This document shows, one piece after another, positions 39,539-61,076 of a DNA stretch of 64,000 nt. A program made the position numbers and the translations under genes. Each line of letters starts with the position of its first letter. The first letter of the stretch is position 1. Where the stretch lies: positions 72,497,093 to 72,561,092 of the forward strand of contig OX344763.1 in the NCBI GenBank assembly GCA_947034895.1, read 5' to 3'. The notes under the pieces were generated by a model. The model worked only from the letters and a program-made list of their open reading frames with translations. It was not told where the DNA came from and searched no databases. Source of the DNA: Rhytidiadelphus loreus. Lineage: Eukaryota; Streptophyta; Bryopsida; Hypnales; Hylocomiaceae.

Positions 39539-39917
39539 TTTAACTCAAGCCGAGTTAAAAAGCCGACAAAGACAACTCTGCTCGCAATATTTAATTTGAG
39601 CCGAGTTAAATAAAAGAATAGCAAGTTTATGAAACCAATTTAACTCGAACCGAGTTAAAGAAGAAAAGCCTCCAAACATTTAACTCGAACCGAGTTAAAT
39701 AACTAAGTCATTACAAAGTAACCAGGCATGACAAGTAATACTCACATTCTCATACCCTCGAATTACATGACACTCTGAATCATAAGAAAAGTGAAATAGA
39801 TGAGTTCTAACTCGAGTCGAGTTAAAACACTGAAGCATTCAATAGACATAGAAGGAATAGCAGAAGGAAAATGATTTCAATGAAATATGAAACAATGTTT
39901 AACTCGAGTCGAGTTAA
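39539..39917. promoter_or_regulatory. Six copy-B-type palindromes just upstream of copy B
   Basis: Sites at about 39539, 39590, 39639, 39679, 39806 and 39898 have arms TTTAACTCGA and TCGAGTTAAA (with small changes, for example CTCGAACCGAG) around one base. They sit 30–410 bases before the ATG. Just before the ATG there is TGTGCAG|CA, so the sites may lie in a 5' intron or in the promoter. Confidence 0.85.
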
Positions 39918-39947
39918 CAATGTCAGTTGTTATATGGTTGTGCAGCA

Positions 39948-41378
39948 ATGGAGGCACAAGTCGTTGGCCTGGAGGTGTACTTGAAACATTTTATCATCCC
40001 TGAAGAAAACCGGGACGAGTACGGAGATGCCAACATGCTTGGTGAATGCTGGGAGTGGCAGGAACCTCATGAAGTTGAGTACTGGACAATAGTCCTCGTT
40101 CCCATGAACCAGCACCTCTCTTTCCGAACGAAATACAAGAAGGTCGAAGGCAACCTCCCCGTCACACTGATGGAGGCTGTGCGAGAGGTTTTGACTAGTC
40201 CAAATGGACTTCTCTTCATTTGCTGCAAGACAGTCGACCCCCAGCAAAAAGAAGAGTACATATTTTCATACGTCGTGAACAACCGAAAAACAACATTCTC
40301 CGTGTCTATCTACTACAGGTCGCTGGAAAACACCGACTACCAAGCGCTTCAGAAGATCATCGAGAAGCAACTTGAGGAGAAGAGATGGAAAACCAAAGAC
40401 GGAGGCCCTCTGCAGTCAATGACATTGGCATTCAGGGTGAACTCCCTCGTCACCGGATTTGATCAGCTGAAGGCTTCACTGGCTAGCCGAAGCGACAGAC
40501 TACAGCCAGTCTCTCTCACACGTGATTACAGCAATCAGCCAAGTCACGGATCCCTCGTAATAGTAACACCCGAGACTGGTCGAAGCCACACACGTCTCAA
40601 GCACACGGAATGTTTTGGTCGGGGAGAACCATTGGGGTCTCCGTCCAGGGCGCCTAAACCACAAGGAGTTGCGAAACGAAAGGATTCCCTGGTACCCAAA
40701 AACAGCCTGTTCTCCGAGATTGTAGACATTCCGCAGGACATTGGCGGAAAGGTTAAGGACATCGACTACGAGGTGGCCTGCAAATCATATTCCAATTACT
40801 GGTCAGCATGCACAGAATCTTACATTGGAGGGATTGGAGAGAAGTTTGAGATTTCCATAGACCAGCTGGAGAAGCCGCCCCAGAATCTCAACATTCGAGT
40901 GCTGGAAGAGCAGGGTGTGATGAGTTCGCTCAACTTCTTCATCAATATGCCTGACCCCGACAAGAAGATGACGCTCTGTGCTTATCCACAAGGGCAAAGA
41001 TCCAAGCCTACAAAGTTCTAGGACATGAAGGATGGAAAGTTCTAGATGGTGAATGGCCAACACTGTGTGGCAGCCTCCCAAAGAATGCAAGGGATGGAGT
41101 AGATTCCTGATGACAAGAAGGCGAAGTTCAAGAAATGGGATTGCTTTGTCGTCTGGAACAAGGACGACAGTGTCATTAGGAAAATCTCGGCATATTATAA
41201 CATGGTCAATCATTTCCAGAACTTCATGCCAACATGGTCGACCAACATTTTGGCATCGAGGTCTGTCTGGACAAGTATGGGAAGTCCAGCACCGCCAAGA
41301 GAACCCACAAAGCTTGGAAAGATGGTAACCCCGACTAGGAAGTCGAAGGCTGACGGCAACAATCAGAGATTGTTTGCG
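39948..41378 (+). pseudogene. Copy B exon 1: N-terminal region plus ParB/sulfiredoxin-like stretch
   Basis: The frame starts at ATG 39948 (MEAQVVGLEVYLKHFIIPEE) and runs 357 codons to TAG at 41019. It continues in the same frame through TAG at 41043 and 41100 to a donor GCG|GTAAGT at 41379 in phase 0. The last 150 codons read SSLNFFINMPDPDKKM, KF-stop-MVNGQHCVAASQRMQ, KKWDCFVVWNKDDSVIRKIS and YYNMVNHF, the pattern of a ParB/Srx domain (y.ivdGxHRvaAa, then p..vv....d....ls...N), with H kept and R changed to C. In bacteria ParB-like domains bind or cleave DNA, or act as CTPases. The N-terminal 250 residues are unknown. The three stops are all TAG, at positions that would read well as glutamine. 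Confidence 0.6.
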
Positions 41379-41393
41379 GTAAGTTCATCACCT

Positions 41394-41468
41394 TATTTCG
41401 AGTCGAGTTAAAATCCTTAATGTTCTTCCTAGTCTGCATCTCTCCAGTTTTAACTCGGATCGAGTTAA
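41394..41468. promoter_or_regulatory. Two copy-B-type palindromes in copy B intron 1
   Basis: Sites at 41394–41413 and 41448–41468 (TTTTAACTCG, GAT, CGAGTTAAGA) lie in the 126-base intron 41379–41504. The matching intron of copy A carries two copy-A-type sites. Confidence 0.8.
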
Positions 41469-41504
41469 GATTTCCACTGACATTGTGGATCCGTGAATTT
41501 GCAG

Positions 41505-42878
41505 GAGTTTAAGACCGCCATTAAGCTCAGATTCTATATAATTGACATCAAAAAGAACCAGGGCTATCTGAGCAAGAAGAACCAGAAAGAAATTGACATT
41601 CACAATGAGATCAAACTCATTACAGCTTCTCAGGATGTCTACAACCTCTAGGCCGAGGTAATCTCCAGTCAGTCGCAAGGGGGCCTCATCGACCCAGACA
41701 CTTTGATGGCATTCAAGGACGTCAAGGGCTGGGACGCAGACAAGGATGGAGTCATATCTCGGGAGTTCTTCAAGTGGATCGGGAACATTACCGAGAATGA
41801 CCTCGGAAGGCTTGCGTTGCATCTTCTATTCAAAACAAAGAACCGAGCGCACGGGCATCCAAAGGTTGTCATGAAGGCACCTAAGTCAATCCTCCCTGAC
41901 TGCTACACTGCAAAGGACTGGCTCGAACGAACCAAGAGGAAGGCCACTGTGAAGATTCAGCTTCACAACCTGGACTCGAAGCTCAGGTTGTTTGACAACG
42001 ATGGGAACTCCAGGAAGAAAGCATGGAAGGACTTCAAGCGTGACTATAACGTGACAAAGGCCACAAAGAACACGTTGCTCACGGGGCCAGGGGAGACCTT
42101 TTTCACTCAAATGAAGATGCCTTCCAATAAGAAGAAGACCATCGATGAGCTATCTCCTATGGCCAAGGAGTTTTTCAAAGTTTTCTTGCAGAGCAAGGGT
42201 CGATTCCTGAAGCCAGAGGCGAGCGCTTTTTTCAGACCCTACGAAATGAATGACGACGAGCTCGGAAATTGGGATGCAAATGTCTGGGATGAGGAGGTGT
42301 AGTCGAGGATCAAGCTGGCGGTTATCGACTTCAGAAACGTCTCGGGTGTCATCAACAAGGGTCCGAACGACAGCGAGTCTCTATACTTCGAGAAATTCAT
42401 GGGTATTCTTGGAGATGACCTTGAGACAGACCTCACCGATCCAGAGACAGACCTCACCGATCCAGAGGTGTATCTGTGGATCGCAGGGGAAAAGGAGGTG
42501 GAACTGGAACTTCGTGGATTTGTCAGGACTTCCATTTTTGGGAAGAACTACTCGGTGCACTACGCCGACTACATTCCATCCAATTTCGAGAGGATTGGAG
42601 ACGTCCCAGAAAGGAGTACTCGTGCAAGGGATCCTATCCAGCTGCTCTTCCTTGTGAAGAATGGGGCCACCATGAAAAATCGACATATTCCGAGATCTTT
42701 TTTCGTATCCCCGAAATCGCACTACAACACCAGAAGGTAGACAGTGGAGGTTGAGTACAGGATCTACAACACAGAACTCCGAATGGAGTTTTATTTGAGA
42801 GTGCTGGACCACTTCGTCAGTGCAAGGGATGTCGTGCTGTCGTATTTTGCTAGAGGCAAATTCACATGTGCTGCGTGG
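41505..42878 (+). pseudogene. Copy B exon 2: degenerate DNA-methyltransferase-like region
   Basis: The exon lies between TTTGCAG and TGG|GTGAGT and is 458 codons in phase 0. It aligns with copy C exon 2 and copy A exon 2. Landmarks are SREFFKWIGNITENDLGRLA, DCYTAKDWLERTKRKATVK, SPMAKEFFKVFLQSKGRFLK, LAVIDFRNVSG, LLFLVKNG, and EYRIYNTELRMEFYLRVLDH followed by SYFARGKFTCAAW. The end resembles methyltransferase motif I with the glycines partly lost. Stops are TAG at 41649 (tryptophan in A and C), 42300 and 42738. A small duplication (GDDLETDLTDPETDLTDPEV) is present. No frameshift. Confidence 0.6.
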
Positions 42879-42930
42879 GTGAGTGTCTAGCCATACCAGA
42901 ATATGTATATATGAATCCCCCTACCAACAC

Positions 42931-43225
42931 TTTATCTCAAGTCGAGTGAAAATTATTTCTAGTATCTGATTATCTGATAGGCTGCTCTCGTTACCTCCAA
43001 TGCCTGTTCTAAATGAACTTGGTTAAACTCGAGTCGAGTGGAATCTGTTGTTGATATCTTTTAATCAGATTGGTTGCTCCAGTTTCCCCTAATTTCTGTC
43101 AGACTTGGAATCACTTTAACTCGAGTCGAGTGAAAATGTATTGCTGGGATCTGCTCATCTGATAGACTGCTCTTCCCCACCAAGTTCTGTCAGAACTTAG
43201 ATGACTTTAACTCGAGTCGAGTGAA
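42931..43225. promoter_or_regulatory. Four copy-B-type palindromes in copy B intron 2
   Basis: Intron 42879–43266 contains sites at about 42931, 43023, 43114 and 43205, most with arms CTTTAACTCGA and TCGAGTGAAA. The 3' arm has GTGAAA instead of GTTAAA in all four, a shared change within this intron. Each site is followed by a similar stretch (GATCTG...CTGCTC), so the sites multiplied together with flanking sequence. Confidence 0.85.
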
Positions 43226-43266
43226 ATCTTTTGTTCTCATGGCTTGCTCTTGTCCGTCTTCTGCAG

Positions 43267-44242: not shown

Positions 44243-44272
44243 GTTGTTCCCTGTGACTCCTTGAACCTACGT

Positions 44273-44293
44273 TTCAACTCAATCCGAGTTGAA
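44273..44293. promoter_or_regulatory. Copy-B-type palindrome in copy B intron 3
   Basis: Arms TTCAACTCAA and CCGAGTTGAA (one mismatch) in intron 44243–44448. The matching intron of copy C has a copy-C-type site at 59674. Confidence 0.75.
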
Positions 44294-44448
44294 TTGCTTC
44301 CGAGTTTTCATGGACAGTGTAGAACAGTGATTAGCAAAATAGACTAAGCTTTCATAGTCCATTGCATGTATTGTACCATTTTCTCTTTCATAGAGACATT
44401 GTAATATATTTTTTTCTCACAAATCATTGTCTGGCTTGAATTCCGCAG

Positions 44449-44864: not shown

Positions 44865-45008
44865 GTATGTACTTTGTCTTGTATGTAGTAGTGTGTGTCG
44901 TCGTGGTTGTTGTGTCTGACATTGGTTGAATACATTGGTTGTTTTTCGCCTTCCCTATCGACTTTGCCCCGGTTTAATTTTCGATTTGTCTGTGTTCCTT
45001 ATGAGCAG

Positions 45009-45983
45009 GGTGCCAGTAAGGAGATCGTAGGTGATTTAATGGCGGATGTTCAAATTCGTAGTCCGTTCACATCTAGATTCAATAAGAAATGGCTCAATGT
45101 CGTTCTAGATCTGAATGGGCTTCTGTGCTTTTGTGATGATATGAGATATCACATAAAAGAAAGGAGAGTATGCTCTCTTCACGAGGTCGTCCCGAGAGCG
45201 GAGAGTTTCATCATGGAAATGGAAAGGGTCACTTTCCGACCCCATGTTAGAAGGTTCGTGCGGGAGTTGACCTCCTTTGCAAATGTCGTTATTTGGAGCT
45301 CCATGGATCAATCCTACGCGAAGCTCGTTGTTAATTTTCTCTTCCACGGCCTGACGCCCCCCTTCGGTGTCCTCGGCCAAGAACAATGTACCGTCATGAA
45401 ATCTAGAGACGGGAATGGCATGCTAAAGAACTACAGGTTGAGGGGATCACGCAAGGACCTCTTTCTCAAGCCACTGGATAGGTTGTACAAACTGAAGGGG
45501 TCCATCTTCACGAAGGAAAACACTATAATAGTGGACAATAGCCCCGAGAAACACTTCATGAATGATCCCACGAACGTAGTGCTCCTAGACTCGTGGTGTT
45601 TTGACGGGCAGGGGTCGAGAGACGGGGTTCTCATATTTGAACTCCTGCCTTGGATTAAGAGACTGCATGTAGAGAGGCCGTGGGAAATGTTTTCTTTCCG
45701 TAGAGACAATGCTATAGGGGGCATCCATCTCATGCATGACGCCGACCAATCCAAGTACAAGGAACTTCAGAGGGCACTTGCGGTCTCTAATAGACTTCAT
45801 AGAGAACGGAAAGTGGATGATTTCGGGCGTGTCATTCCTTTGCCGAAACCACGCGCAATGCCCGCAACGAAGCGCAAGGAGCTCACCTAAGAAGACATCT
45901 ATTTTCGTCCTTGTCCGCCTCCAGAACAAACTTGTCTATAGGACCTCTAGAAATTTGTAGACGACGTAGTTGTGTTTGAGAGG
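45009..45983 (+). pseudogene. Copy B exon 5: FCP1/NLI-type HAD domain
   Basis: The exon opens after TGAGCAG with GASKEIVGDLMADV. HAD motifs: WLNVVLDLNGLLC (motif I, about 45096), VVIWSSMDQSY (motif II), LRGSRKDLFLKPL (K), NTIIVDNSPEKHFM (motif III/IV), then LLPWIKRLHV. This is the FCP1/SCP/NLI-interacting-factor fold that removes phosphate from proteins such as the RNA polymerase II CTD. DLNG and VDNS replace two of the usual acids, so it may be inactive. 293 codons are open. TAA at 45888 and TAG at 45939 and 45948 follow, and the same frame runs on (CPPPEQTCL, KFVDDVVVFER) to a donor at 45984 in phase with the next exon. The true exon therefore includes these stops. Confidence 0.75.
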
Positions 45984-47009: not shown

Positions 47010-48530
47010 GTAGAACTCCTATTTCATTGGAAAACTCCCATTTTAATGAATATGATGTTATTCATGAGTTTAGGAATAATAGCAATTTGCACAACATATT
47101 TTTCCATTTTCTTTTACGTGAATTTCGTGACATTATAGTTTTCCGGAAAATAAAGTGCAGAGCAAGACCATTGTCCTAATTTTTAGTTTCACATACAAAA
47201 TCATTGAAAGTGACCACCAAGTGTATATTCTTTTCAATTCATGAGTTTAGGAATAATTGCAACTTGCACAACATGTTTTTTCATTATTTTTTACTTGAAT
47301 TTCGTGACATTATATTTTTTTGGACATTAAAGTGCAGGGCAAGACCGTTGCCCCAATTTTTAGTTTCATGTACAAAATCATTGACAGTGACCACCAAGTG
47401 TATATTCTTTTCAATTCATGAGTTTAGGAATAATTGCAACTTGCACAACATGTTTTTCCATATTTTTTTAATTGAGTTTCATGACTTTATATTTTTTTGG
47501 ACATTAAAGTACAGTGGAGGACCGTTATCCCAATTTATAGTTTCACTTACAAAATCATTGAAAAAGACCACCAAGTGCATATTCTTTTGAATTCATGAGT
47601 TTAGGAATAATTGCAACTTGCACAACATGTTTCCGATTTTTTTTACGTGAATTTCGTAACATTATATTTTTTTGGACATTAAAGTGCAGGGCAAGACCGT
47701 TGCCCCAATTTTTAGTTTCACGTACAAAATCATTGACAGTGACCACCAAATGCTTATTCTTTTCAATTCATGAGTTTAGGAATAATTGCAACTTGCACAA
47801 CAAGTTTTTCCATTTTATTTTACGTCAATTTCGTGACATTATAGTGTTTTGGAACATTAAAGTGCAGAGCAAGACCACTGCCCCAATTTTTAGTTTCACG
47901 TACAAAATCATTGACAATGACCACCAACTGCATATTCTATTCAATTCATGAGTTTAGGAATAATTGCAACTTGCACAACAAGTTTTTCCATTTTATTTTA
48001 CGTCAATTTCATGACATTATAGTGTTTTGGAACATTAAAGTGCAGAGCAAGACCATTGCCCCAATTTTTAGTTTCACGTACAAAATCATTGACAGTGACC
48101 ACCAACTGCATATTCTTTTCAATTCATGAGTTTAGGAATAATTGCAACTTGCACAACAAGTTTTTCCATTTTATTTTACGTCAATTTCGTGACATTATAG
48201 TGTTTTGGAACATTAAAGTGCAGAGCAAGACCACTGCCCCAATTTTTAGTTTCACATACAAAATCATTGATAGTGACCACCAACTGCATATTCTTTTCAA
48301 TTCATGAGTTTAGGAATAATTGCAACTTGTACAAGAGGTTTTTCCATTTTATTTTACGTCAATTTCGTGACATTATAGTGTTTTGGAACATTAAAGTGTA
48401 GGGCAAGACCGTTGCCCAAATTTTTAGTTTCACGTACAAAATCATTGACAGTGACCACCAAGTGCATACTCTTTTCAATTCATGAGATTAGGAATAAAAC
48501 ACTATATTCATTAAAATGGGAGGATTGGAC
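47010..48530 (+). repeat. 177-bp satellite array 1 (about 8 units) between inverted ends
   Basis: CATGAGTTTAGGAATAATTG recurs at 47063, 47240, 47417, 47594, 47769, 47947, 48125 and 48303, with a last partial at 48481: spacings 175–178. The array is bounded on the left by CTCCCATTTTAATGAATAT and on the right by the inverse ATATTCATTAAAATGGGAG, so it behaves as a bounded unit. It starts about 240 bases after copy B. The same repeat lies inverted at 54.5 and 62.1 kb. The stretch 48530–48737 is AT-rich and has one more ATTAAAATGAGAG end-like word near 48633. Confidence 0.9.
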
Positions 48531-48737
48531 CCTCTCAAAATGAAGTAGTCTATTTAGACGTTAACAATTGAGTTTTAATTCTAGCCAATATCCATTTATA
48601 AACACAAAATCTATTAGTTGCAAAGTGTAGTTTCCATTAAAATGAGAGTTTTGATAGTCATGAATGTACAATTGATTTTGTTCTGTGTAATACTAGTCTT
48701 CAAATTCATATAAGTAAAGATTAGGTCCTACGCTAGA

Positions 48738-48853
48738 CACCAAGTCATGAGCTCCGTGGTTGGTTGTAAGGGGTTATTTATCTCATCCACGCGGTCCGGG
48801 TTCGATTCCTGTTGAATTCGTATGAGCGCATGACAGAAATACATGACTTGGTG
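48738..48853 (+). mobile_element. tRNA-derived SINE-like element between 12-bp inverted repeats
   Basis: CACCAAGTCATG (48738–48749) and CATGACTTGGTG (48842–48853) form a perfect 12-bp inverted repeat. Inside are a tRNA-like head (GCTCCGTGGTTGGTTGTAAG) and a perfect pol III B box GGTTCGATTCC at about 48800. It does not fold into a complete tRNA. The 48854–49290 stretch is AT-rich, with no gene. Confidence 0.5.
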
Positions 48854-49292
48854 CTGCTAAGTGAGCTTTGCAGGTAGGAAAGTCGTAATGACCAACCAAC
48901 CCCTACCCAAAATGTGACAAGTACTTTACACATTATCAAAATAAAAAGTGGATATGTCCACTCCACTTTTTTTGTAATAATTACTACTATAATTTGAAGT
49001 GAAATATACTCAATGATACAAAAAACAAAAAACAAATCGAAAAACTATGATAAACGAAACACGACAATATAATAGGAAGTATATTGATATGGTATGAACA
49101 TTTCATTGTCATCTAAAAACATTAATCGCACACCAAAACATCTATACAACAACAAAAATTAAATTAGTAAAAAATCAAATGAAACCTACACCACATAAAT
49201 ATATAAAAACAAATCTGTTATATGAATGAAGAAGTTGGGAAAATCATAATTAAACCAAATTCACACCATCAATTCATATAAAACTTCAAATA

Positions 49293-51537
49293 TCATGTGT
49301 ATGATGCAAGACTTTGGTTGATGACTTCAATTTGAGCCGCCGGAATCTTAATCATGCATTGCACAGTATCTCTTCTGATTTGAGACTTCCATGTTGTCAT
49401 CAAGGCGTTTGTTTCCTCCCAAACCGGTGGTTCAGCTTCATCGACCTTCCAACGCAAACCTCTTTCACTATCCCATCTTATGTAGTTGTTCTGAACATTC
49501 TCATTTCGGGATGTTGGACGAAAGTATTGAATGAGCACACAATTTGGTTTCTCTGGATTACAAAAAGGGTTAGACAAAGCCCTTGCAATCCAAACTGGTC
49601 GAGTATCAACATTTGCGGGTCGAATTGCAACAAAGTAGCCTTCGAAGAGATCTCGAGCGACCCTAAAGGATGGTTCTGGGCGTCCTCGTAAAGGCCCGAC
49701 GTAGGCGTCATCTTCCCCGAACTCTTCGCAAACCTCACCATCTTCATTTAATTCGTCAGCAGCAGTTGCTTCAACACGAGTAGTCGGCCAAAAACCATCC
49801 TTCAAAACCAAGCCTATAGTGTATCAATGCTTCCTTCACACCACGCCAATAGTGTATCAAATGCTCATACCGTCTTCGATACTCTCCACTTACATCTAAA
49901 TCGCACAAATTCTGCCAATATCTCACAAATCCAGATATCCCTTTCAGAATGTCCTCCATGCCTCTCATTGCCCTCTGTGGAATTGGCAAAGGTGCCCCAC
50001 GTGGCCACAAACTTTGCCCTCCTGCATCTTCTTTCCACAACTTAATGCCTCTACCTTCTTCCCCTAGCCATTCTACGTCAGTGCACAACAATTTGTACTT
50101 CATGACTGGACACCCACTTGAATCTAGGTAGAACTTGACTTGTTGTGGCTTCGTGTGTCCAATGAGCCTGTCATCACCATCAAGAAATGATCCTTCAATA
50201 AATCCCTTGAAATTTGGCACCTCTTCTATAAGGTGAGGGATAGTGGGAATGGATTCCACATCCATGAAGGACTTCATGAGAGTAGGGATTGTTGGAAAAC
50301 TCTCCTTCTTCAATAGCATGCTCCATCTTCCAAACAACGCATCAATGTCATCATGTGTGTAGCCAACAATCATAAAATTTACATAAACTTCACAAAAGAT
50401 TTTGTTTGCCACAAGTAGAGACCAAAAACCAAAAACGAATCTATTTTTGTTGTCCCCAGTAGCATTATCCATTTGCACATTGAGAATGGGTGGCAATGGT
50501 GTTGCAGGAACCAATGTGTCCGTTGGTGGGGGTAGTGAGGCTTCACACATCTCTGCGCCTTTCAAGACCGCATCAAACAAAGAGGTAGACCTCGAATTCA
50601 TGAACAACTGCCGAGAAGAAGACTTTGGTGGTTGTTCGAGGTCCCGCAACAACTTCGCCATTGAACCAATGGTGTAATTTGAATCATGGGGGAAAAGGTC
50701 TAAGCCGTAATGTGCATACCGCACATCAGCATGACCATGTGCAATCATGCCAGTCACAGACAAAGGCAACTTCATTAGGCTATCCAACTCTTTACTCTTA
50801 TGAGAGAAGACCGGAGAAGCTGTTTTGGCATGATCCATCTTGTCATGCATAATTGTCAAACACTCGTGTGGAAAATTATGCGATCGATACCGATTTGCAT
50901 AGTACAACTCCCTATGTGCTCGAGCTATAGCCAGATGTTTATCAAGTAACATCTGCCACTTCAAACAAGTTTGTGATCCAGATAAAGTACCCTTAATAAG
51001 CTCTCGTAGTTTGTCACACTTCGCACAATGGGCAAAATTATCTCCAGGCTTCTTTACATCGTACTCTGGGAACCTGGAAGATCTAATCTTGCTCAAGTTT
51101 GATGAAGAGACCTCCTTCAGTCCAAAAGCAACATTGGTTTCGTTAATTTTTGCCATCTGTCCTTTCCATTGAAAAGTTGCCGAGAGAATCATGGAGACAA
51201 CCTTGTCTCCTGACTTGAGAGTCCGAGTACGATGTGGCATGTGATCCACTTCTTGCTCAAGAATGCACTTCAACGTAGTTGTAGCTTGTTGAGTATGCAT
51301 CCTAGTCTTCACTTGCCCAGTATTGCCATGAACCGTTGCTTCACGACCGTCCTTCTTATATGCTTGGTAGCGGTAGAAGGTAGACTCTGGGACCCCAAAA
51401 ATAAACATCCACGCTCGCATGCAAACATCTATCCCATCAATTGTTACCATCCTTCTCCATGCATAGTCACGATGCATTTGTCTATGCACCTTAGTCTTTA
51501 TGAAAGCTCTGTGCTTGAATGTAGAATTCTGGTACAT
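49293..51537 (-). pseudogene. DUF7869-type transposase-like protein, one frameshift
   Basis: On the minus strand a 588-codon frame (51537–49771) contains AWMFIFGVPESTFYRYQAYK, a C..C pair (FAHCAKCDKL), LTIMHDKMDHAK, LNVQMDNATGDNKNRFVFGF and MIVGYTHDDIDALFGRWSML. The last two are the DUF7869 pattern (q.DN...NKN, vGHTHeDID). The three acidic positions suggest an RNase-H-like DDE nuclease (inference). Near 49800 the frame ends RLGFEGWFLADYSC, but the natural continuation lies one frame over (VLKDGFWPTTRVEA, to TGA at 49293; 172 codons). A single one-base frameshift therefore separates body and C-terminus. The protein is otherwise intact, so it is recent. No terminal inverted repeats were found. 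Confidence 0.65.
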
Positions 51538-51738
51538 GCGTTCCCGAAAGGCTCAAATTTTCTCTCTTGGAAACGGCTGCACGCAATTTCTGCTATAGCA
51601 AACCTTGCTTGAAACTATATTGATAGAGTCTTGAGTGAGTAGGCCTCTCGTTTTTATGCATGTCTCACGAGGCGGGTTCCGAATGTCACTTGCATACGGT
51701 CAAGCAAATGTTCTCGATGGTGGATTCAAAAGACTCGC

Positions 51739-52120
51739 TTACAAACGATTATAATTATCTCGGGCTTCATGGTCATGTAGACTTGCTCCTCGACAGTGCA
51801 CTAATGTGATTGGCCAGACTATCAATGAGTACACTTGCTCTTCGGGGATGTCAGCCTCAGAAAATGATTTACAAAGATGAACAGCCACGTTCTCATCCCC
51901 AAGCGGACCATTCGCTCCAAGCACCAAATCCGAGTTCACGCTATGACAAGTACCTTCACCAACAAGTACTCCTTCAACGTTGTATAGAGTTACACACTTT
52001 GTGTTCCACAGACGACGAGGAAGACCTTCGCATTCGGGAACGTCCACAACTACTACCTGAGGCACTTATATCTCAACGTCCAAGAAGTCCATGTCACTGA
52101 AATCCTCAGCTGTGGAATTC
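51739..52120 (-). pseudogene. Probable upstream exon of the DUF7869-like gene, DUF8039-like
   Basis: The minus-strand frame reads FSDMDFLDVEI, stop, VPQVVVVDVPECEGLP, VTLYNVEGVLVGEGTCHSV, LGANGPLGDENVAVHL, EEQVYSLIVWPITLV. The LY....vvaeG....g....g.plg.d...V pattern recalls the plant transposase-associated DUF8039 domain. It has one in-frame stop near its start, ends in TAA at 51739, and lies 200 bases before the transposase frame on the same strand, so it is probably the same element. Confidence 0.4.
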
Positions 52121-52242
52121 ATGATGTCTGTATATTACAATGTCAGAATGAATAATGATAAGAACTTTATTCATATGAAAATTTACAAAATAGTACTATA
52201 AAGAATTCAGTTTCAATAAAACAGGCCACAATCGAGAGACAA

Positions 52243-52909
52243 ATCAGCTCGATTCGAGCTGATCTGTAGATCTCCCAAATTATCAAGTCTTCCTATGAAA
52301 TTAAAAACGAACATATTGAAGTTGACTCCTGATCATAATCCAGAACATCTTACTCAATTACATATGAGTTCATGATTTGATATTTAAGCAAAAGGTGAGT
52401 AGATATGCAATCAAAACACGTGGAAACGTAATGTAAACATAAAGGCATATCAGACAGATTAAAGTATGGAATATTTCACCCACTTTCATATCATACTGCA
52501 TATTAGCTCGAGTCGAGCTGATATGCAAGGACAATATATCAATCTCACTGACCTTCAATATTACTAGAGACGATTTGCATTGATTTGCGTATCAACTCGA
52601 CTCGAGCTGATTCACACCTTCTCGTTCAAGTTCATTGTATATAATAAATTAATGTATTCAAGTTCAATGTATTCAGGTTCATTGTACATAGTCGATCAAT
52701 ATTCACACAATGATTCTTAAGTTCAGATGGATCATAAATAGATTGAGATGATATATAATGTCTTGCCAACGTAAAGAATATATTAAGATTTGTAAATCAG
52801 CTCGAGTCGAGCTGATTAGCGAGATAGATTATTATTCTCGACCTTTGTTATTCCTTCCGCATGGGATTCACATATGAATAAACTACACATCAGCTCGAAT
52901 TGAGCTGAT
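52243..52909. promoter_or_regulatory. Five copy-C-type palindromes 4 kb upstream of copy C
   Basis: Sites at about 52243, 52501, 52591, 52797 and 52889 have arms ATCAGCTCGA and TCGAGCTGAT around one base, which is T, G, C, G or A. They mirror the upstream clusters of copies A and B. Recognisable copy C exons begin only at 57070, so its 5' end may have been moved away or overwritten by the satellite and other insertions between 53 and 56.6 kb. Confidence 0.85.
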
Positions 52910-54107
52910 ATGCTGGCCCATTAGAACATGAATCTATTAATAGTACCCGGGGTTTGCGGCACAGTTCTTGGAGTTCAATTCACACTACAATTATTCGATT
53001 GTGGAGAAATGTGCTAGGAAATCAAAATGAATTGCACCCTGAATGCAACATCATTATCGTTTTTGAAATGTACAGATTGAATAGAAGTATACAGAATCAA
53101 CAAACAAAAATCTCAAAAATAAGTCTGCGAATATGAATACAAAATCAACGAACAATAATCTCAAAAATAAGTCTGCAAATTCTATGAACGTAGAGCAGTG
53201 CAGTGGCTGAGGAATTGCGACTGACTTACAGTAATCGAAGTGCGGTGAAACACTTCCTCTCAGAATGTAATGGTACAGAAAGCAACGTATTCCTAAAGAC
53301 CTCTTCTAGCCTCCCTAAACATGCACAAAACTAATCATTACATGCTGAATACAATCCGGAAAGAAGAAATGCACAGAGAGGTTCATACAATTGAAGAAGA
53401 AGTGGGAAATGAGGTTTGGAATTGGGGTGACGTCGTACACCTCAATGTATGGCGGGAAGAAAAGAGCGCCATCTTCAGGACGTTTTGAAATGAGAATTTC
53501 TGAAAGTCGGGAATCCCTGAATACCATGGACCTGCCCACCTTTACCCTAGGAAACGACACAAAATGTTTGATACAGTAGTTGACCCCACGAAAATTGTGG
53601 TGTCAGCAAGGTTGATGAGATTCCTTTTAAAAGAAAATGTTGACTTTCCTAACTATCGTGGCTCTACTTCGGGTCCGCGGCCTCTCGGTTATCTACAACG
53701 TCAATATCACGGGATCTTTACATTCCATGTATTAAAAGTAATATAACAGTTGCCTAGGAGTACCTTTTCAATTTTTAGTAAGTTGGAATATCTTTGTGTC
53801 TAGTTTTTTAAAAATGAGTAACTTTCGGGGTTCCCCCCCCCAAAAAAAGGCAATTTAAATCTTCCATAAATAAATTGATAATGAAGGATTCACAGTAACT
53901 TTTAGTAGTTGTTGGATTAGGGTATAGGGTTTAGGGTTTAGGGTTTAGAGGTAGGGTTTATCATTGTTTTGGATTGGCTCTAGGAATCATCAAAACACTT
54001 GCATAATCCAATAAAAACACGATTTTCGGGTTTAGTAAAAATTAGAATTTGAGTGACAAATGTTTTGAAACAAATGAATGCAAATGCTTTCAATTGGGAA
54101 GCCATTT
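52910..54107. other. Spacer with an interstitial telomere-like tract
   Basis: TTTAGGG occurs about three times in succession at 53927–53955 (GGTATAGGGTTTAGGGTTTA...). A short CCCCCCCC/AAAAAAA run lies at 53835. Frames at 53391–53746 could be remains of a copy C 5' exon (VWNWGDVVHLNVW vaguely recalls copy B WEWQEPHEVEYW), but I cannot support it. Confidence 0.4.
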
Positions 54108-54359
54108 CATTTTTGCTTCTCTTTATGCAATGATTTCTTGCACTTGAAATTCCACAAATATCGATCATAGATAGAGAAGAAGATTCACTACCTATTTCAG
54201 ATGTAGCTAATTCTAATAACAAAGCTTCTCTGTCATTTTTGCTTCTCTTTATGCAATGATCTCTTGCACTTGAAATTCCACAAATATCGATCATAGATAG
54301 AGAAGAAGATTCACTACTTATTTCATATGTAGCTAATTCTAATAACAAAGCTTCTCTGC
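54108..54359. repeat. 126-bp tandem duplication
   Basis: CATTTTTGCTTCTCTTTATG begins at 54108 and again at 54234, and the whole 126-base unit is nearly identical. The period is 42 codons, so a minus-strand frame stays open through both units (DICGISSARDHCIKRSKND). No gene is implied. Confidence 0.9.
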
Positions 54360-54485
54360 AAAGAAACAAGTGTTTTCATTATTGATTATATTCCTCTAAT
54401 CTAATGTAAAAATATAAACCAACGAACTTATGAAACAAAAACTTAAGCACCCAACCTACTCAAGAACTCCCAAAAATATGCACTT

Positions 54486-55025
54486 CATAGTCTCTCACTT
54501 TGAATGATTTTGTACATGAAACTAAAAATTGGGGCAACGGTCTTGCCCTGTACTTTAATGACTGTCCAAAAAAATATAATGTCATGAAAATTCACGTAAA
54601 GAAAATGGTAAAACATGTTTGTGCAAGTTGCATTTATTCCTAAACTCATGCATTCAAAACAATATGCACGTTTGGGTGGTCACTTTGAATGATTTTGTGC
54701 GTGAAACTAAAAATTGGGGCAATGCTTTAATGCCTGACCAGAAAAATATAATGTCACGAAAATTCATGTAAAGAAGATGGTAAAACATGTTTGTGCAAGT
54801 TGCATTTATTCCTAAACTCATGCATTCAAAAGGATATGCACGTTTGGGTGGTCACTTTGAATGATTTTGTGCGTGAAACTAAAAATTGGGGCAACGGTCT
54901 TACCCTGTACTTTAATGACTATCCAAAAAAAAATAATGTCATGAAAATTCACGTAAAGAAAATGATAAAACATGTTGCGCAAGTTGCAATTATTCCAAAA
55001 CTTTTGAATTCAATGTGCGATTTCT
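54486..55025 (-). repeat. 177-bp satellite array 2 (about 3 units), inverted
   Basis: Units with CACTTTGAATGATTTTGT at 54496, 54681 and 54853, each followed by GAAACTAAAAATTGGGGCAA and CCTAAACTCATG-type words, are the reverse of array 1. The copies are more diverged from the 47- and 62-kb arrays than those are from each other. Confidence 0.8.
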
Positions 55026-56600
55026 TTCATTGGTGCTTATTTTGACCTTGTATGTTAAATTATAATTTAGGGGTATGAATCGGTCATTGTACATTATACC
55101 CTAAACCCTCAACCCCTCAACAACCTCAAATCTAAATATGAAATTCATGTGAAACGCTACTACGTGAAAACTAAGTGACTTGACTACTAAAACCATGTAG
55201 TACTAGTTACAATGATGCGAAATGAATGATGTTTGTTAGATGACATTATTTAATGTTACATAGAACTCTAAAACCGAAATTGATTTATGAAGTCTTGAAC
55301 CAATGAGCTTTTTAATTGTGTCATAATAACGTGGTTGCCTCCGTCACACGAAAGTTAAATATTTGCTACTGCTTCTCTGATTTGTTAAATCTCATTGTGT
55401 ACAAACAATAGTGAAGTTAGTCATGAACCCTCCTAGCCTCGTGCAGTGCATCTTTACAGTAAAACATACAAAGCATGTAAAGAATGATTTTCGGTTCATG
55501 AAAGATTGACCAAAAAACAATCCCTACAAGAGAGAAGTGCAACTGTGCGTCTCACTTCCAAATTTGGTGTAAGAAGTAAATGATTTCTAGAGTATTATAA
55601 CATTCAACAAAGGTTTAATGTTTTATGATCATAAGATTAACTAAAGAAAAAGGACTCAGTGACCCACAATTTTATGCTTCCAGCTATGCATTGTATTATT
55701 ACTTGCTTGCATTAAAGTTTTTTTGTATCTTCCAAAAGGTTAGTGTAGGACTGGACAAGTCCGGGTATTTGGATAGGTCCGGGTATGGCAGACAAGTCCG
55801 GGTATAGCAGATAGGTTTGGGTATACGCAACTCCAGTATGTCCGGGCAGTGACGGAGCTAGGGTTTCGTGATTTCTCGCGCATTGTTTTGACGCGGTTGT
55901 TTGTTTCCCTTTCCCCTGTATTGTAGTAAACCGTCGTGCATGCTTGCGAGCATGGGGGCTTCTGCTGGTGTTAGGGTTTGGTTTCTTTGGCGAGGCTTCT
56001 GCTGGAGGGAGTTTCTGCTGCCGTTAGGGTTAGATTTTTTGGCGGGGCTTCTTCTTGTGTTAGGGTTTCGTTTCGGGGCGGGGCTTCTGCTGGAGGGGCC
56101 TTCTGTTGGAGGGGGGCTTTTCAAACTGCGCGCCGGAAGCGTTAGGGTGAGATTCAGGCGGCGAGGCGTTTGCCAACGGTCTTCACGGAGCGAGATTGAG
56201 TTCGGGTTCGTGACATTGAGGAGCTTCCGAATGGTCTTCACGGAGCAAGATTGAGGAGGCTCGGCCGACTTCAGTGAGTGGTAATGTACTTCAATTCTTG
56301 GGCGTTGGGGTTTGTTGCATTTGCTGCGTGTTTGGTTTCCTAGAAAGGCGTTGATTGTTTCCTTCCTGGGCGCTGCATGTTTGGTTTCCGGGTTTTGTTG
56401 CACTTGCTGGGCACGTATGCTGGACGTTGAGGCGATTGGGGTGGTTTGCTGTCTTCACATTTGTAGGAGTGTGGAAGCTTCAACAAATTTGGTTGATCAA
56501 ACCTGCGTTTCCGGATGCGACGTTATGTACTTTGAGAATTTTTATTTAACCATGATGTGGAACAGGAGTGTGAGGATCAGCAAGAATACACCTTGAGATT
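55026..56600. other. Spacer; G-rich GCTTCTGCTGG repeats at 55950–56110
   Basis: The first part is AT-rich without a gene. From 55740 to 55850 GACAAGTCCGGGTAT-like words repeat about four times. From 55950 to 56110 GGCTTCTGCTGG and GTTAGGGTTT words alternate. Frames here are repeat-driven and unconvincing. Confidence 0.4.
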
Positions 56601-56679
56601 CAACTGAATGGCTTGTGTGTGATTTTGTAGCGGAGGATTTGGTGACTGGTGTTCGGTGTGATGTCTTGGTTTAGGGTTT

Positions 56680-56819
56680 AGAATTTTCCTCAGGGAGGAA
56701 TCGACTGCGGATGGTCTTGTAGAGCGCACCATTCCACTTGCGTCTTATTTGACAGCACTTCGAGTGAAGAAGACAAAGCCACCGCCAGGATTCAGCAATG
56801 CTTCCTCCGCAATCCCTTG
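56680..56819 (+). CDS. Candidate exon before copy C exon 2
   Basis: An open stretch ends at a consensus donor CCTTG|GTAAGT (56820). In the frame that would join in phase with the next exon at 57070 it reads CVLFDSTSSEEDKATARIQQ, CFLRNPL. It shows no clear similarity to the ends of copy A or B exon 1, so it may be a replacement 5' exon or chance. Another frame is also open. Confidence 0.3.
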
Positions 56820-57069
56820 GTAAGTAATGACGTTCATAACCTAATTTCTGTGTTTCTGTAAAGGTGACAACCAAGCATTTGATGTGGAGAGAGGGCAATG
56901 TTAGATTTCATGATCTTGAATGTTCTTCTTCAGCATTACATTGTCCTTTTTTTGGAACCTTGCTTGCATGAGCATATTGAACATATCCAACCACTGAGGT
57001 GATGTACTACATAACCGAACGAGAGTCGCTTGAGTCGGAATTGCTGATCCCCTTCCTCATTGTTTGCAG

Positions 57070-58416
57070 GAGTTTGAAAAGGCTGTATACGTTCGGTTCT
57101 CCTTGATCAACGTCAACAAGAATTTACAAATTTCCAAGAAGAAAGGCAAGGAGGAGAAGCTAAAACTCACAAATGAGTTAAAGTTGATAACAACTCCAGA
57201 AGACGTCTATAAACTCTGGAGCGATGTTATCACAAATGCCGCGCATGGAGAGCTCATCAACGCGGACACGGAGAAGCAGTTCAACGCAAGGACAGATTGG
57301 AATCCCGAGAACTGTATGTTGACAAGAGAATTCTTTAAGTTTCTCGGGAATTTGAGTTATGATGAATTTGGGAAGCTTGCAATGCATATTCTTAACCAAT
57401 CTGGTGGGAAGCGCAATCTGCCATATTCGAAGGTGACTATCAAGGCGATCTCATCGGTCCTAGATAGTTGCTATACAACAAAAGAGTGGGCAGAGCGGCG
57501 GAAACGGAAGCATTTAGTTAAGAAGGAATTGCATACAATCAACCCAGATCTCGGTCTACTCAACGCCAGAAATGAAATAATAACTGAAAATTGGAAGGCG
57601 TTCAAGAAGGACTGGTGCGTTACGAAAGCCACCATAGATGTTCTTCTCGACCGGCCTGGAGAGGCGTACTTTGCTCAAGCAAAGCAAGTCAGATCGAAGA
57701 ACAAGAGCTGTGCAGAACTATCGGAGCACGCCTATGAGTTCTTCAAGGTCTTCCTAGAGCACAGGAAGAACTTTGTGAAGCCCACGGCGGCTGGATACTA
57801 CCGAACGTACGAAACCGAGAAGAATACTCACTCGGATTGGATGAAGTACGCATGGGTATCGGATACACCAAGGAGAATGGCCCTTGGTGTGATTGATTTT
57901 AGGAACTTGCCTGGGATTGAGAAGAAGGAGAAATCAACAATCGATAATCCTTTCTTCATCGAAGTTATTACATCTTTGTGCAAAGCAAAGAAACCGACAT
58001 TCGAGGAAGTTCCATTGTGGCTCTTCATCTGCGCAGATGAAAAAGAGCAGGCTCAAATACTTCGCTTCGTAGAATCGAACGAAGTCTTGAGCTCATATAC
58101 TGTTGACTTTGCAATGTATAGCGCGAGCAAGCACGATAGATTGTGCAATCTTCCAGTGTCAAAGACGCCGAAGAAAGTGTTGCTCCTGTTCTTACAATGC
58201 ACAAGCAATACGAATCCTGTTGAAATTCCAGAAGAGTTTGGCTGCCCTGAAACAGCTCGCTACATGAAGGCAAGGGCTTACAGCGAGCTTGAGTACCGTA
58301 TTTACAATATGGAATTACGCATGGAATTATATTTATGGCTCATTAAGAAGTTCTGCAATCCTGGCATGTACATATTCTCAGGATTCTCAGGTGGAAAATT
58401 TACATGCGCTGCTATG
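57070..58416 (+). CDS. Copy C exon 2: methyltransferase-like region, fully open
   Basis: The exon lies between TTTGCAG and ATG|GTACGA: 449 codons in phase 0, without a stop. This is the best-preserved version of this region. Landmarks: EFEKAVYVRFSLINVNK; LTREFFKFLGNLSYDEFGKL; SCYTTKEWAERRKRKHL; LGVIDFRNLPG (possible relic of motif IV); VPLWLFICADEKEQAQILRF and KKVLLLFLQ (motif VI–VIII-like); EYRIYNMELRMELYLWLIKK, FCNPGMYIFSGFSGGKFTCA (motif I-like, F-S-G-G). The order IV–VIII–I is that of beta-type DNA N6/N4 methyltransferases. No [DNS]PP[YFW] is present. Later copy C exons are frameshifted, so the whole gene may be dead. Confidence 0.6.
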
Positions 58417-58506
58417 GTACGAACTAGTCCCAAAATAATGGTCGCAACCAATTCATTCATCGTGATTGTATTGACTTATGATCATTTTTGTTCTTTCATG
58501 TGTATG

Positions 58507-58527
58507 ATCAGCTCGACTCGAGCTGAT
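58507..58527. promoter_or_regulatory. Copy-C-type palindrome in copy C intron 2
   Basis: Perfect arms ATCAGCTCGA and TCGAGCTGAT around C, in intron 58417–58577. The equivalent introns of copies A and B carry two A-type and four B-type sites. Confidence 0.85.
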
Positions 58528-58577
58528 TCGTTACTTGATTCTACCCTTCATCTGACATTTAGTGTTCGATTGTGTAG

Positions 58578-59636
58578 ATGAGTTCGGTTGATATTTTCGC
58601 ATCAGGTCCATCTGACCCTGGTGGCAAGATATCTGTACCAAGGCCTTGACTTTAGACAAGTCGGACTTCTTGGAGAGTGGATACCTTGTGAAATCTTCAA
58701 TCGTCCCTCCAGGATTATAGACCCCTTCATCGTCATGGCGTATACTGCGATCCAGTCAGGAGTCGCCTCGCACTCATCTGAGGAGGCCGCCTACTCCAGT
58801 AGTCAACAATGTTGAGGAGTTATCCTCAGATGACGCAGACGATGGAGAAGACATTGATTTGATGGAAGTTGAGCGGTTAGATGATATGTCGATGCCAACA
58901 AGTCGCATGTTTGGTGATGTCCTGAGATCGTCTAGTTCGTCGATGCTGCCGCCCTCGTCACAGACTCCATCTGGGGCTGCGCAAAAGAGAAGGAAACGAG
59001 ATACCATGGCAAGCGTCGTACAGCAGATGGCGGATATGAACCAGAGGAATAACGAGACCATCACAAGAATGTAGGAGCAGAATGAGTTGTCGCAGAAGCG
59101 AACTAAGCTCGCTATTGCGACATTGCGAGCCCAACAAGCTGAACAGCGGGAACTCAATATGCAAATGCATAAGAATACGCAGCAGTGGATGCAGAATGAG
59201 TCTCAGACGAACAGGGACTTCTTTCAGGCCCTATTGACAGGGAAAGTGATTTCACCGTTAGCGTCAATTGCTCCGCCGAAGTCGTCAGCACAGTTGTTGC
59301 TTCGGGAACATCCGACTACGTCCAACGTCAACAGAGCATCAAGCCATCCGATGTCGCTGAGCCAACGTCCTCCTTTACCTGTCGATGCACCTCAATCTCC
59401 ACCTTGTCCTCCATCAGGTGATCCGTCGGCGTCGGCTGCTATATCTCCACCTCTTCCTCCTACAGATGATCCATCGGCGTCGGCTGTTACACTTGACTCT
59501 TCGTCAGATGAGCCCCTTGGTGGATTGGAAGTGGCGTCATCATCAGTGGATGTTGCCATTGGGCACAACCTGACCTTGGATGCTTCCAACGTGGAAGTCG
59601 GAAGTGGTGTGCAACCCGCCGATGATCCACCAGCAG
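58578..59636 (+). pseudogene. Copy C exon 3: linker with coiled coil, frameshifted near its start
   Basis: After TGTGTAG the exon begins MSSVDIFASG (copy B MMSLDHFVVA), but the family block TLDKSDFLESGYLVKSS is in another frame. A frameshift therefore lies at about 58600–58650. From there one frame runs to the donor CAGCAG|GTTGTG. It has an acidic segment (ELSSDDADDGEDIDLMEVER), a basic QKRRKRD, a coiled coil (LRAQQAEQRELNMQMHKNTQ) and PPLPPTDDPSASA repeats. In-frame stops are TAG at 58718 and 59072 only; the second sits in a glutamine-rich helix (ITRM, stop, EQNELSQK). Confidence 0.5.
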
Positions 59637-59673
59637 GTTGTGCCCAATGATCACCCCTACATTGTTTTGTAGT

Positions 59674-59696
59674 TTCAGCTCGAATCGAGCTGATTT
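59674..59696. promoter_or_regulatory. Copy-C-type palindrome in copy C intron 3
   Basis: TTCAGCTCGA, A, TCGAGCTGATTT in intron 59637–59875, at the same relative place as the copy-B-type site at 44273. Confidence 0.8.
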
Positions 59697-59875
59697 GAGT
59701 GGTTGTGCGGCAGGTGTAGATATAGCATTCATTTTTGGCGGACCACCATGCCCAAGGGTTGTGGGTCCTAGAGTTCAGATGTTTTGATCTTAGTTTTGTA
59801 TCCTGGAACTCATTTTAAGAGCATGTAATATATGATTTTCTCACGGACCGTTATGTACTCTATGTTCAATGGCAG

Positions 59876-60075
59876 GCCCTCTGAATCTTCCAATTGTGAA
59901 TGATATTTGTCAATTCCCCTGCATTCACACTTGTATGCAAGCACCGCCGATCATCAATGACATCTCTGCATCCACTAAGTGCTCCAATGAACATATCGCC
60001 CAAGCCTCTGATTTGGATACTGCACCTGCTAGACTTGTAGATGCGGATCACTCATTGGATGCCATGGAGAGAAAG
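59876..60075 (+). pseudogene. Copy C exon 4: short linker
   Basis: Between ATGGCAG and AAAG|GTACAA, 200 bases, joining phase 1 to phase 0 as copy B exon 4 does. It reads GPLNLPIVNDICQFP, then APPIINDISASTKCSNEHIA. No stops. It lacks the EVIPEVP repeats of copy B. Confidence 0.45.
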
Positions 60076-60235
60076 GTACAATAAGTCTCTTACAATTATA
60101 TCTGATCCTAGGATATTTCAGCATCGCGTTTTGTTGTTGATCACCATTGATTTCTTGAATGATCTGTTTCTCCTGGACGTAATAAGCCAATATTTTGATT
60201 GTAACTGGTTCTACGATTCGTCCGTTTCCTAGTAG

Positions 60236-61030
60236 GAATGCGATCCTATCGTAGCTCTTGAGGGAACCTCTGAGACCATCCATCGTCCATTGAGGTCCGG
60301 GGTGGTGGAGAAGTGGGTCAACGTCGTCCTAGACCTCAATGGGATTCTATGTGTAGCCGAAGATTGGAAGTCCAAGGGGACGGTGGCACGGTTCAACCAC
60401 TACTTTGAGCCGCATCCTGTGACAGTTGCCGCGATTGTGGGGCCGAAGGCGGTGTACGTCCGGCCCAATTGCTCTACGTTTCTAATTGAATTAGAGAAGA
60501 TTGCATTTATTTCAGTGTGGAGCTCCATGAAAAAATCCACCACTGATGAGGTTTCCAAGTACCTATTCCATGACGGAGTCATGCCCATTCATATTTTGGG
60601 ACAAGACTTTTGCAAAACTGTTAAGGTCAGGGATAGGTTCGGAAGATTGACGTCCTATAAGGAACCGGGGACTCAGAAGGATTTGTTCCTTAAGAATATG
60701 GATTCGCTCCTCTCGGGGTTCCGAGGGTGGTTTACTTGCGAGAATACTATATAGTAGACGATAGCCCCCGAAAGCACATCATGAACAAGCCGGAGAATGT
60801 AATACTTCCGGATTCATGGTCAAATCGGGGAAATGGGGACAAGGACTCATTTCTCATGAATGTACTATTAACCTGGTTCAAACGATTGCATGTGAACGGC
60901 AGCGAGGGGCTAAGGTCTTTTCGGTCGAACGGCCTAGGGAGGATTGGTTATAGAATGCTCTGCGATGAAAGGAGGCGGCGGGAGTACGACAGGCTCCTAG
61001 AAGTAGTTTGTGGGTCGGCTAGTGTTAGTT
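60236..61030 (+). pseudogene. Copy C exon 5: FCP1/NLI-type HAD domain with one-base deletion
   Basis: After CTAGTAG the frame reads ECDPIVALEGTSE, then KWVNVVLDLNGILC (motif I, DLNG), FISVWSSMKKST (motif II), MPIHILGQDFCKTV and GTQKDLFLKNM. At about 60754 copy B has ACTATAATAGTGGAC but copy C ACTATATAGTAGAC. One base is missing, creating TAG TAG and shifting the rest. The remainder is in the next frame (VDDSPRKHIMNKPENVIL, LLTWFKRLHV). The deletion removes the link to motif III/IV, so this copy cannot make a full HAD domain. Its 3' end, donor included, is unclear. Confidence 0.7.
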
Positions 61031-61054
61031 AGTGCTAGGCTTAGAGATATGTAG

Positions 61055-61076
61055 TTCAGATCGGGTCGAGCTGATG
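61055..61076. promoter_or_regulatory. Degenerate copy-C-type palindrome before the last exon
   Basis: TTCAGATCGG, G, TCGAGCTGATG lies in the intron before 61186. The left arm is mutated and the right arm is intact. Confidence 0.65.

What the first reader, a model, noticed from the sequence alone, without database searches (positions are those of the whole stretch)
39539..61076. Each paralogue carries its own version of a 21-bp palindrome, upstream and in its introns
Copies A, B and C share a site with centre TCGA-N-TCGA. The outer arms differ by copy and are kept within a copy: A has GTATC/GATAC-type arms (about 9 sites, 1454–6750), B TTTAACTCGA/TCGAGTTAAA (13 sites, 39539–44293), C ATCAGCTCGA/TCGAGCTGAT (8 sites, 52243–61076). 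The central base varies freely (G, A, C, T), as expected for a dimer site with a one-base spacer or a hairpin loop. Sites cluster upstream and recur in corresponding introns. Chance cannot give about 30 such sites with copy-specific arms, and common descent alone cannot explain why the arms changed together within each copy. Possible roles: an operator for a co-diverged dimeric regulator (perhaps the ParB-like product acting on its own locus, a parS-like relationship), a copy-identity tag, or a spreading miniature element that targets its own copy.
Basis: partly seen in the sequence, partly recalled or inferred. Interest (0 to 1): 0.93.

Follow-up and report, generated by a model that had tools for sequence, protein, structure and literature searches.

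The report
Plant transposons with subfamily-specific palindromic sites
A large family of plant jumping genes carries many copies of a 21-letter mirror-image DNA site in its own control region and introns, each subfamily with its own version, and encodes a protein whose predicted parts resemble the bacterial ParB clamp and a DNA-methylating enzyme, which makes it a good candidate for a private self-recognition system of a genomic parasite.

Summary
In detail: copies A, B and C hold 9, 14 and 8 sites; the stricter class numbers 19 against 0.4 expected. The sites are subfamily-specific, not copy-specific. In the 407-Mb genome, exact B, C and a fourth (G) type occur 120, 145 and 68 times; reversed controls 0. 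Of 50 listed sites each, 38 B, 41 C and 40 G lie within 12 kb of a gene found with their own clade's query, none near the compared clade. Type A is weaker. Arms follow the protein tree of 57 loci. The constant core is CGA-N-TCG.

Copy C is a DNA transposon with terminal inverted repeats; seven of seven sister elements have 4-bp target duplications. The site-bearing gene encodes a predicted ParB-like fold, a beta-class adenine-methyltransferase fold lacking DPPY (0 of 48) and a NIF phosphatase-like domain.

Best reading: the protein binds its own subfamily's palindromes as a dimer and marks or de-silences its own element, as Arabidopsis VANC proteins do with different proteins and sites. Binding and function are inferred. 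The searches made found no report of it.

The parts
48498..62149 (.). Copy C: DNA transposon bounded by inverted termini
   Evidence: Termini paired in inverted orientation here and around sister elements
48498..48522 (+). Left terminal inverted repeat of copy C (AACACTATATTCATTAAAATGGGAG)
62125..62149 (-). Right terminal inverted repeat of copy C
49293..51552 (-). DUF7869 gene (two open stretches), divergent partner gene and candidate transposase
   Evidence: PF25273 E 5.4e-40 for 49771-51552; head-to-head with the site-bearing gene at 44 of 47 neighbouring pairs
52243..52909 (.). Copy C upstream cluster, 5 sites: 52243, 52502, 52591, 52796, 52889
57067..58416 (+). Copy C exon 2: helical part, then beta-class N6-adenine methyltransferase-like fold
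   Evidence: Predicted structure and PDB comparison; DPPY absent in 48 of 48
58507..58527 (.). Copy C site in intron 2
59674..59694 (.). Copy C site after exon 3
60236..60990 (+). Copy C NIF phosphatase-like region (reading frame breaks near 60750)
   Evidence: PF03031 E 2.8e-07 for 60236-60751
61055..61075 (.). Copy C last site, between the NIF region and the last open frame
61165..61824 (+). Copy C last open frame of the gene
   Evidence: ORF; homologous to L040 4202-4852
39434..39918 (.). Copy B upstream cluster, 7 sites: 39434, 39539, 39590, 39639, 39679, 39806, 39898
39948..41378 (+). Copy B exon 1 (in-frame stops near its end): N-terminal domain and ParB-like domain
   Evidence: ORF, borders read by eye; fold predicted on a sister element
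41392..41469 (.). Copy B intron 1, 2 sites: 41392, 41449
41505..42878 (+). Copy B exon 2 (contains in-frame stops)
   Evidence: tblastn extraction and tree; borders by eye
42931..43226 (.). Copy B intron 2, 4 sites in a 91-92 bp tandem array: 42931, 43023, 43115, 43206
44273..44293 (.). Copy B site in intron 3
44892..45890 (+). Copy B open frame with NIF phosphatase-like domain
   Evidence: PF03031 E 1.2e-14
47039..47059 (-). Terminus-like sequence, 2 mismatches; possible right end of the copy B element
1453..2007 (.). Copy A upstream sites: 1453, 1555, 1776, 1987
3924..3944 (.). Copy A intron 1 site
3973..5421 (+). Copy A exon 2 region (two open stretches with a stop between)
5334..5411 (.). 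Copy A intron 2 sites: 5334, 5391
6550..6750 (.). Copy A sites 6550 and 6730, inside an open reading frame

Best explanation
The copies belong to a large dispersed family of plant transposable elements. SHOWN: each subfamily carries many copies of its own version of a 21-bp palindrome (constant core CGA-N-TCG, variable arms) in the 5' region and introns of one element gene; the arms track that gene's phylogeny; listed B, C and G sites lie mostly within or beside such elements; C-clade elements are DNA transposons with inverted termini and 4-bp target duplications. SHOWN BY PREDICTED STRUCTURE ONLY: the product joins a ParB/Noc-type fold and a beta-class N6-adenine methyltransferase fold without DPPY; by profile match it also has a NIF phosphatase-like domain. 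INFERRED: the product binds its own subfamily's palindromes as a dimer, the methyltransferase-derived part reading core and arms and the ParB-like part possibly spreading from them; the element is thereby recognised as self and kept open against host silencing, as VANC proteins do for VANDAL elements in Arabidopsis. New specificity arises when protein and sites change together, helped by local tandem duplication of site-bearing units.
For: Genome counts 120, 145 and 68 for B, C and G types with 0 in reversed controls and 0 for a same-core palindrome with other arms; 38 of 50 B, 41 of 50 C and 40 of 50 G listed sites near own-clade hits, 0 near the compared clade; arm label needs 6 changes on the tree of 57 loci against 23 in shuffles; half-sites step TTTAGC-GCGA, TTTAGC-TCGA, ATTAGC-TCGA, ATCAGC-TCGA along one branch; sites less variable than flanks in 12 of 13 columns, equal in 1; ParB/Noc fold; methyltransferase fold; termini and 4-bp target duplications at 7 of 7 sister elements; VANC precedent of family-specific motifs in noncoding parts and tandem repeats (PMC5735166, abstract and passages).
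Against: No binding, methylation or expression data. Structure matches rest on predicted models; no Foldseek match has E below 0.001, and no sequence-profile match to ParB or methyltransferase families was found. The window's own copies are damaged: C has no recognisable exon 1, A and B have in-frame stops. Of 50 listed A-type exact matches 26 sit in one 40-copy repeat with no family gene found near. Co-divergence cannot by itself say which linked gene reads the sites. Shuffles and site-versus-flank contrasts are helped by near-copies and by the choice of palindromic columns.
Confidence: 0.5

Rival explanations
1. Same binding protein, opposite use: the palindromes are operators through which the ParB-like product represses its own and its divergent partner's promoter, limiting copy number, as KorB-type proteins repress plasmid operons.
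For: In C-clade elements a site cluster lies between two divergent genes (copy C 52243-52909; L039 1308-2094). ParB/Noc/KorB folds are among the best matches.
Against: Sites recur in introns 1 to 3 and after the NIF region, where a simple promoter operator is not needed.
Confidence: 0.2
2. The sites are binding sites of the partner DUF7869 protein, the candidate transposase, like subterminal repeats of other transposons.
For: DUF7869 genes are paired head-to-head with the site-bearing gene in 44 of 47 neighbouring pairs.
Against: Sites are not near the termini: in copy C the first is 3.7 kb from the left end and the last 1.1 kb from the right. They lie in introns of the other gene. Only 2 of 56 A-clade and 2 of 42 B-clade hits tested have a scored DUF7869 hit within 25 kb, yet those clades carry sites (scored hits are 74 of 1962 candidates, so weak).
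Confidence: 0.1
3. The protein is an active adenine methyltransferase and the palindromes, each holding GANTC, are methylation targets that tag the element's DNA.
Against: DPPY absent in 48 of 48 aligned proteins, replaced by D-[FL]-R in 44 of 48; the motif I region is also altered.
Confidence: 0.05
4. No protein reads the sites: repeats inherited within each subfamily, or RNA hairpins.
For: Within a subfamily identical arms need only recent descent; copies are decaying (57 in-frame stops in exon 2 of 57 loci).
Against: Between subfamilies many sites of an element carry the new arms together; sites vary less than flanks in 12 of 13 columns; no wobble excess, G.T 72 against A.C 75.
Confidence: 0.1

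Closest known systems
VANC proteins and their motifs in Arabidopsis VANDAL transposons (Hosaka et al. 2017, PMC5735166; abstract and passages seen)
   Same: Element-encoded protein; short motifs accumulated in the element's noncoding parts and introns; motifs differ between related families; tandem duplication of motif-bearing units.
   Different: VANC motifs reported there are short and not described as palindromes (YAGTATTAY; AGTTGTCC/AGTTGTAC); here 21-bp palindromes with a constant core. Here the protein has ParB-like, methyltransferase-like and NIF parts and, in C-clade elements, the partner gene is DUF7869. Anti-silencing is untested here.
ParB/Noc/KorB and parS-type palindromes of bacteria
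   Same: Predicted fold of the exon-1 C-terminal part; palindromic sites clustered near the gene.
   Different: The conserved box reads NGQHSV rather than the arginine box of ParB (that box is recalled); no CTP test; host is a plant; site sequence unrelated as far as recalled.
Bacterial ParB-adenine methylase fusions such as Bce_0392 (named in a passage of PMC5512222)
   Same: ParB-like and adenine-methyltransferase-like folds in one protein.
   Different: Catalytic DPPY missing in 48 of 48; extra N-terminal domain and NIF domain; intron-bearing transposon gene.
CcrM and other beta-class N6-adenine methyltransferases
   Different: Altered catalytic motif; 21-bp rather than 5-bp site. The GANTC match may be coincidence.
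Sola1 transposons of Physcomitrella (named in a table of PMC9033089; 4-bp target duplications are recalled)
   Same: Large moss DNA transposons; 4-bp target duplication.
   Different: No comparison of DUF7869 with a Sola transposase was possible; the ParB-like partner gene is not known to me from Sola.

Membership tests
DNA transposon with terminal inverted repeats (C-clade elements) | Inverted termini bracketing the genes | tested here: met
   Termini at window 48498 and 62149; 14 inverted pairs 5-40 kb apart in a hand-transcribed part of the listing, 12 of them with a scored DUF7869 gene inside
DNA transposon with terminal inverted repeats (C-clade elements) | Target-site duplication | tested here: met
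   4-bp duplication at 7 of 7 sister elements with both flanks read; not seen at copy C itself, which lies between inverted 178-bp arrays
DNA transposon (A- and B-clade elements) | Termini and transposase gene | tested here: inconclusive
   Only one degenerate terminus next to copy B; scored DUF7869 near 2 of 56 A and 2 of 42 B hits
VANC-type anti-silencing system | Family-specific motifs in the element's noncoding regions | tested here: met
   exception: two A-clade sites in an open frame
VANC-type anti-silencing system | Protein binds the motifs and causes loss of DNA methylation | not testable with these tools
   No binding or methylation data
VANC-type anti-silencing system | Homology to VANC proteins | not tested
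   No VANC sequence was fetched; no VANC-like Pfam family appeared for the exons scanned
ParB/Noc CTPase family | Fold | tested here: met
ParB/Noc CTPase family | Sequence-profile match | tested here: not met
   No ParB family in Pfam or NCBIfam for exon 1
ParB/Noc CTPase family | CTP-dependent clamp at a palindrome | not testable with these tools
   Needs biochemistry
Beta-class N6-adenine DNA methyltransferase | Fold | tested here: met
Beta-class N6-adenine DNA methyltransferase | DPPY-type catalytic motif | tested here: not met
   0 of 48; D-[FL]-R in 44 of 48

The most novel reading that the evidence does not exclude
A eukaryotic parS-like system: a transposon-encoded ParB/methyltransferase-like/NIF protein loads on subfamily-specific palindromes, a retired GANTC-type methyltransferase fold giving the specificity, spreads along the element to mark it as self, and brings its phosphatase-like domain to the element's transcription; subfamilies are born when protein and palindromes switch together.
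Probability: 0.2. Interest if true: 0.95.

Novelty: new variant of a known kind. Interest (0 to 1): 0.83.

Why it matters
Element-encoded, sequence-specific anti-silencing is documented for VANDAL elements of Arabidopsis (PMC5735166). A second case with other protein folds, palindromic sites and several subfamilies in one genome would suggest that transposons repeatedly evolve private recognition codes. It offers a natural series of half-sites (TTTAAC, TTTAGC-GCGA, TTTAGC, ATTAGC, ATCAGC and TATCN types) with their linked proteins, so that the open question of how a DNA-binding protein and dozens of scattered sites change specificity together becomes directly testable. It would also be a ParB-like fold at work in a eukaryotic mobile element.

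Tried and rejected
Copy-specific reading: rejected, arms are shared by subfamilies. TCGANTCGA as the universal core: rejected by the G subfamily. RNA hairpin: no G.T excess. The 178-bp arrays as the element's ends: rejected, the termini lie inside them and the seven sister elements read have other flanks. Family searches of exons 1 and 2 at sequence level found no known domain (Pfam; NCBIfam; PDB sequences for exon 1). A scan of viral contigs with the exon-2 alignment found no relative among 151 pattern matches. The 26 A-type matches in a 40-copy repeat are unexplained. Transposase superfamily: not settled; DUF7869 was not folded. Host species: not determined; named Physcomitrium patens proteins match exon 1 at 48% identity, so probably a bryophyte. 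Searches for earlier reports: ParB, transposon, methyltransferase, moss; ParB, eukaryot, transposable element, CTP (90); ParB domain, DNA methyltransferase, eukaryot, transposon, adenine (91); DUF7869, transposon, Physcomitri (94); ParB, Physcomitri (108). Their listings show no report of this system; the library lacks most subscription papers, and Bao et al. on Sola elements is not held.

Full report
WHAT WAS CHECKED. The window is C3:72497093-72561092 of a 407-Mb genome. Recounting gives 14 B-type and 8 C-type sites and 9 A-type sites; 19 of a stricter class against 0.4 expected, at most 2 in 200 shuffles. The sites lie in the 5' region and introns: copy B has 7 upstream, 2 in intron 1, 4 in intron 2 and 1 in intron 3; copy C has 5 upstream and one each in intron 2, after exon 3 and after the NIF region; copy A has 4 upstream, 1 in intron 1, 2 in intron 2 and 2 in an open frame (intron borders read by eye).

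GENOME-WIDE TEST. Exact matches: B type 120, C type 145, G type 68; reversed-pattern controls 0 for each; a palindrome with the same TCGANTCGA core but other arms, 0. Only the first 50 places of each type are listed. Of the 50 B sites, 38 lie within 12 kb of one of the 95 B-query exon hits used (random mean 0.27) and 0 near the 50 C-query hits used; of the 50 C sites, 41 lie near C-query hits (random 0.17) and 0 near B-query hits. Of the 50 G sites, 40 lie near rows 51-94 (mostly 62-67% identical) and 0 near rows 1-30. Hit lists are lower bounds. By the coordinates, 8 of the 9 remaining C sites lie within 14 kb of DUF7869 copies at C2:14404594, C3:54543697 and C3:63210553; one (C3:63253747) does not. 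Type A is the weak case: 87 exact matches, 50 listed; 19 of 24 with other spacers are near A-query hits, but 26 are GTATCTTCGA-W-TCGAAGATAC, 0 of them near an A-query hit. That sequence lies in a repeat with 40 scored copies, most 96-100% identical, and a search with the subfamily whose arms are most alike found no hit there either.

ARMS FOLLOW THE PROTEIN TREE. Consensus half-sites were derived for 57 loci and set on a maximum-likelihood tree of exon 2. All 24 TATCn loci form one branch (100/100). All labels together need 6 changes against 23 in shuffles; near-copies inflate that contrast. Three loci (L016, L031, L033) break the pattern in the C clade, with few or decayed sites. Along the C/G branch the half-site reads TTTAGC-GCGA (G), TTTAGC-TCGA (L034), ATTAGC-TCGA (L032) and ATCAGC-TCGA (most C loci). 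Rows L005 and L044 are copies C and A of the window, and copy A appears twice (winA). In three subfamilies, site columns are less variable than flanks in 12 of 13 cases and equal in 1; columns were chosen for looking palindromic, which favours this result. Site-bearing units are duplicated in tandem: 62-bp steps in B-type arrays (coordinates) and about 91 bp in copy B intron 2.

WHAT CARRIES THE SITES. Copy C has inverted termini at window 48498 and 62149. Seven sister elements with both flanks read show 4-bp target duplications (TATC, GAAG, CCAC, GTAG, AAAG, GTAA, GACT); copy C does not and lies between inverted 178-bp arrays. In a hand-transcribed part of the terminus listing there are 14 inverted pairs, 12 of them 16.3-19.8 kb apart and 12 with a scored DUF7869 gene inside. 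Of 74 scored DUF7869 genes (1962 candidates), 47 have an exon hit within 25 kb (random 2), 44 of these head-to-head. This pairing is shown for the C/G branch; only 2 of 56 A-clade and 2 of 42 B-clade hits tested have a scored DUF7869 gene within 25 kb, so those elements may be built differently or carry diverged copies.

STATE OF THE COPIES. The window's own copies are damaged. Copy C shows no match to exon 1 of its sister element and its NIF frame breaks; copies A and B have in-frame stops. The sister element on C2 has open frames for exon 1, exon 2, NIF and the last exon.

MECHANISM. The best-supported account is a self-recognition protein acting on its own subfamily's palindromes, by analogy with VANC (PMC5735166, abstract and passages). 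Shown: the sites, their clade specificity, their concentration in the elements for B, C and G, and the transposon nature of C-clade elements. Inferred: binding, which domain reads the site, spreading, anti-silencing. A repressor-operator role is the main rival and is not excluded.

Noticed in passing
window 47060-48497 and 62148-64000; L039 3391-3986; L041 614-951: 177-178 bp tandem arrays flank copy C in inverted orientation, at about 88% identity, and related repeats lie inside sister elements. A further terminus lies just beyond the window (C3:72562990).
   Followed up: partly
exon 2 of 57 family loci: In-frame stops are TAG 34, TGA 15, TAA 8. An excess of TAG would fit loss of methylated cytosine in CAG (CHG) context; not tested further.
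   Followed up: partly
G000:C1:1676312 and similar; L080-L082: A repeat with 40 scored copies, most 96-100% identical, carries one GTATCTTCGA-W-TCGAAGATAC palindrome and has no family exon found near.
   Followed up: partly
G000:C3:67241418-67258698: This element sits inside another family member: its right flank reads AAAGGCAAGTTCATGATTATAAACGGGCAG, which would translate as KGKFMIINGQ, like the conserved exon-1 box.
   Followed up: no
window 50943-52142 against L039 1-1200: The DUF7869 side is 90% identical in DNA between copy C and a sister element whose exon 2-3 region is only 72% identical: stronger constraint or exchange of modules.
   Followed up: no
G000 chromosome C3, about 48-84 Mb: Family copies look concentrated in this part of C3 in the hit lists; not tested statistically.
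   Followed up: no
window 17469-18086 and 9586-11508: Other mobile-element debris: a weak DUF659 match (below its cut-off) and long open frames inside copy A between 8.2 and 12.4 kb, probably a later insertion.
   Followed up: no
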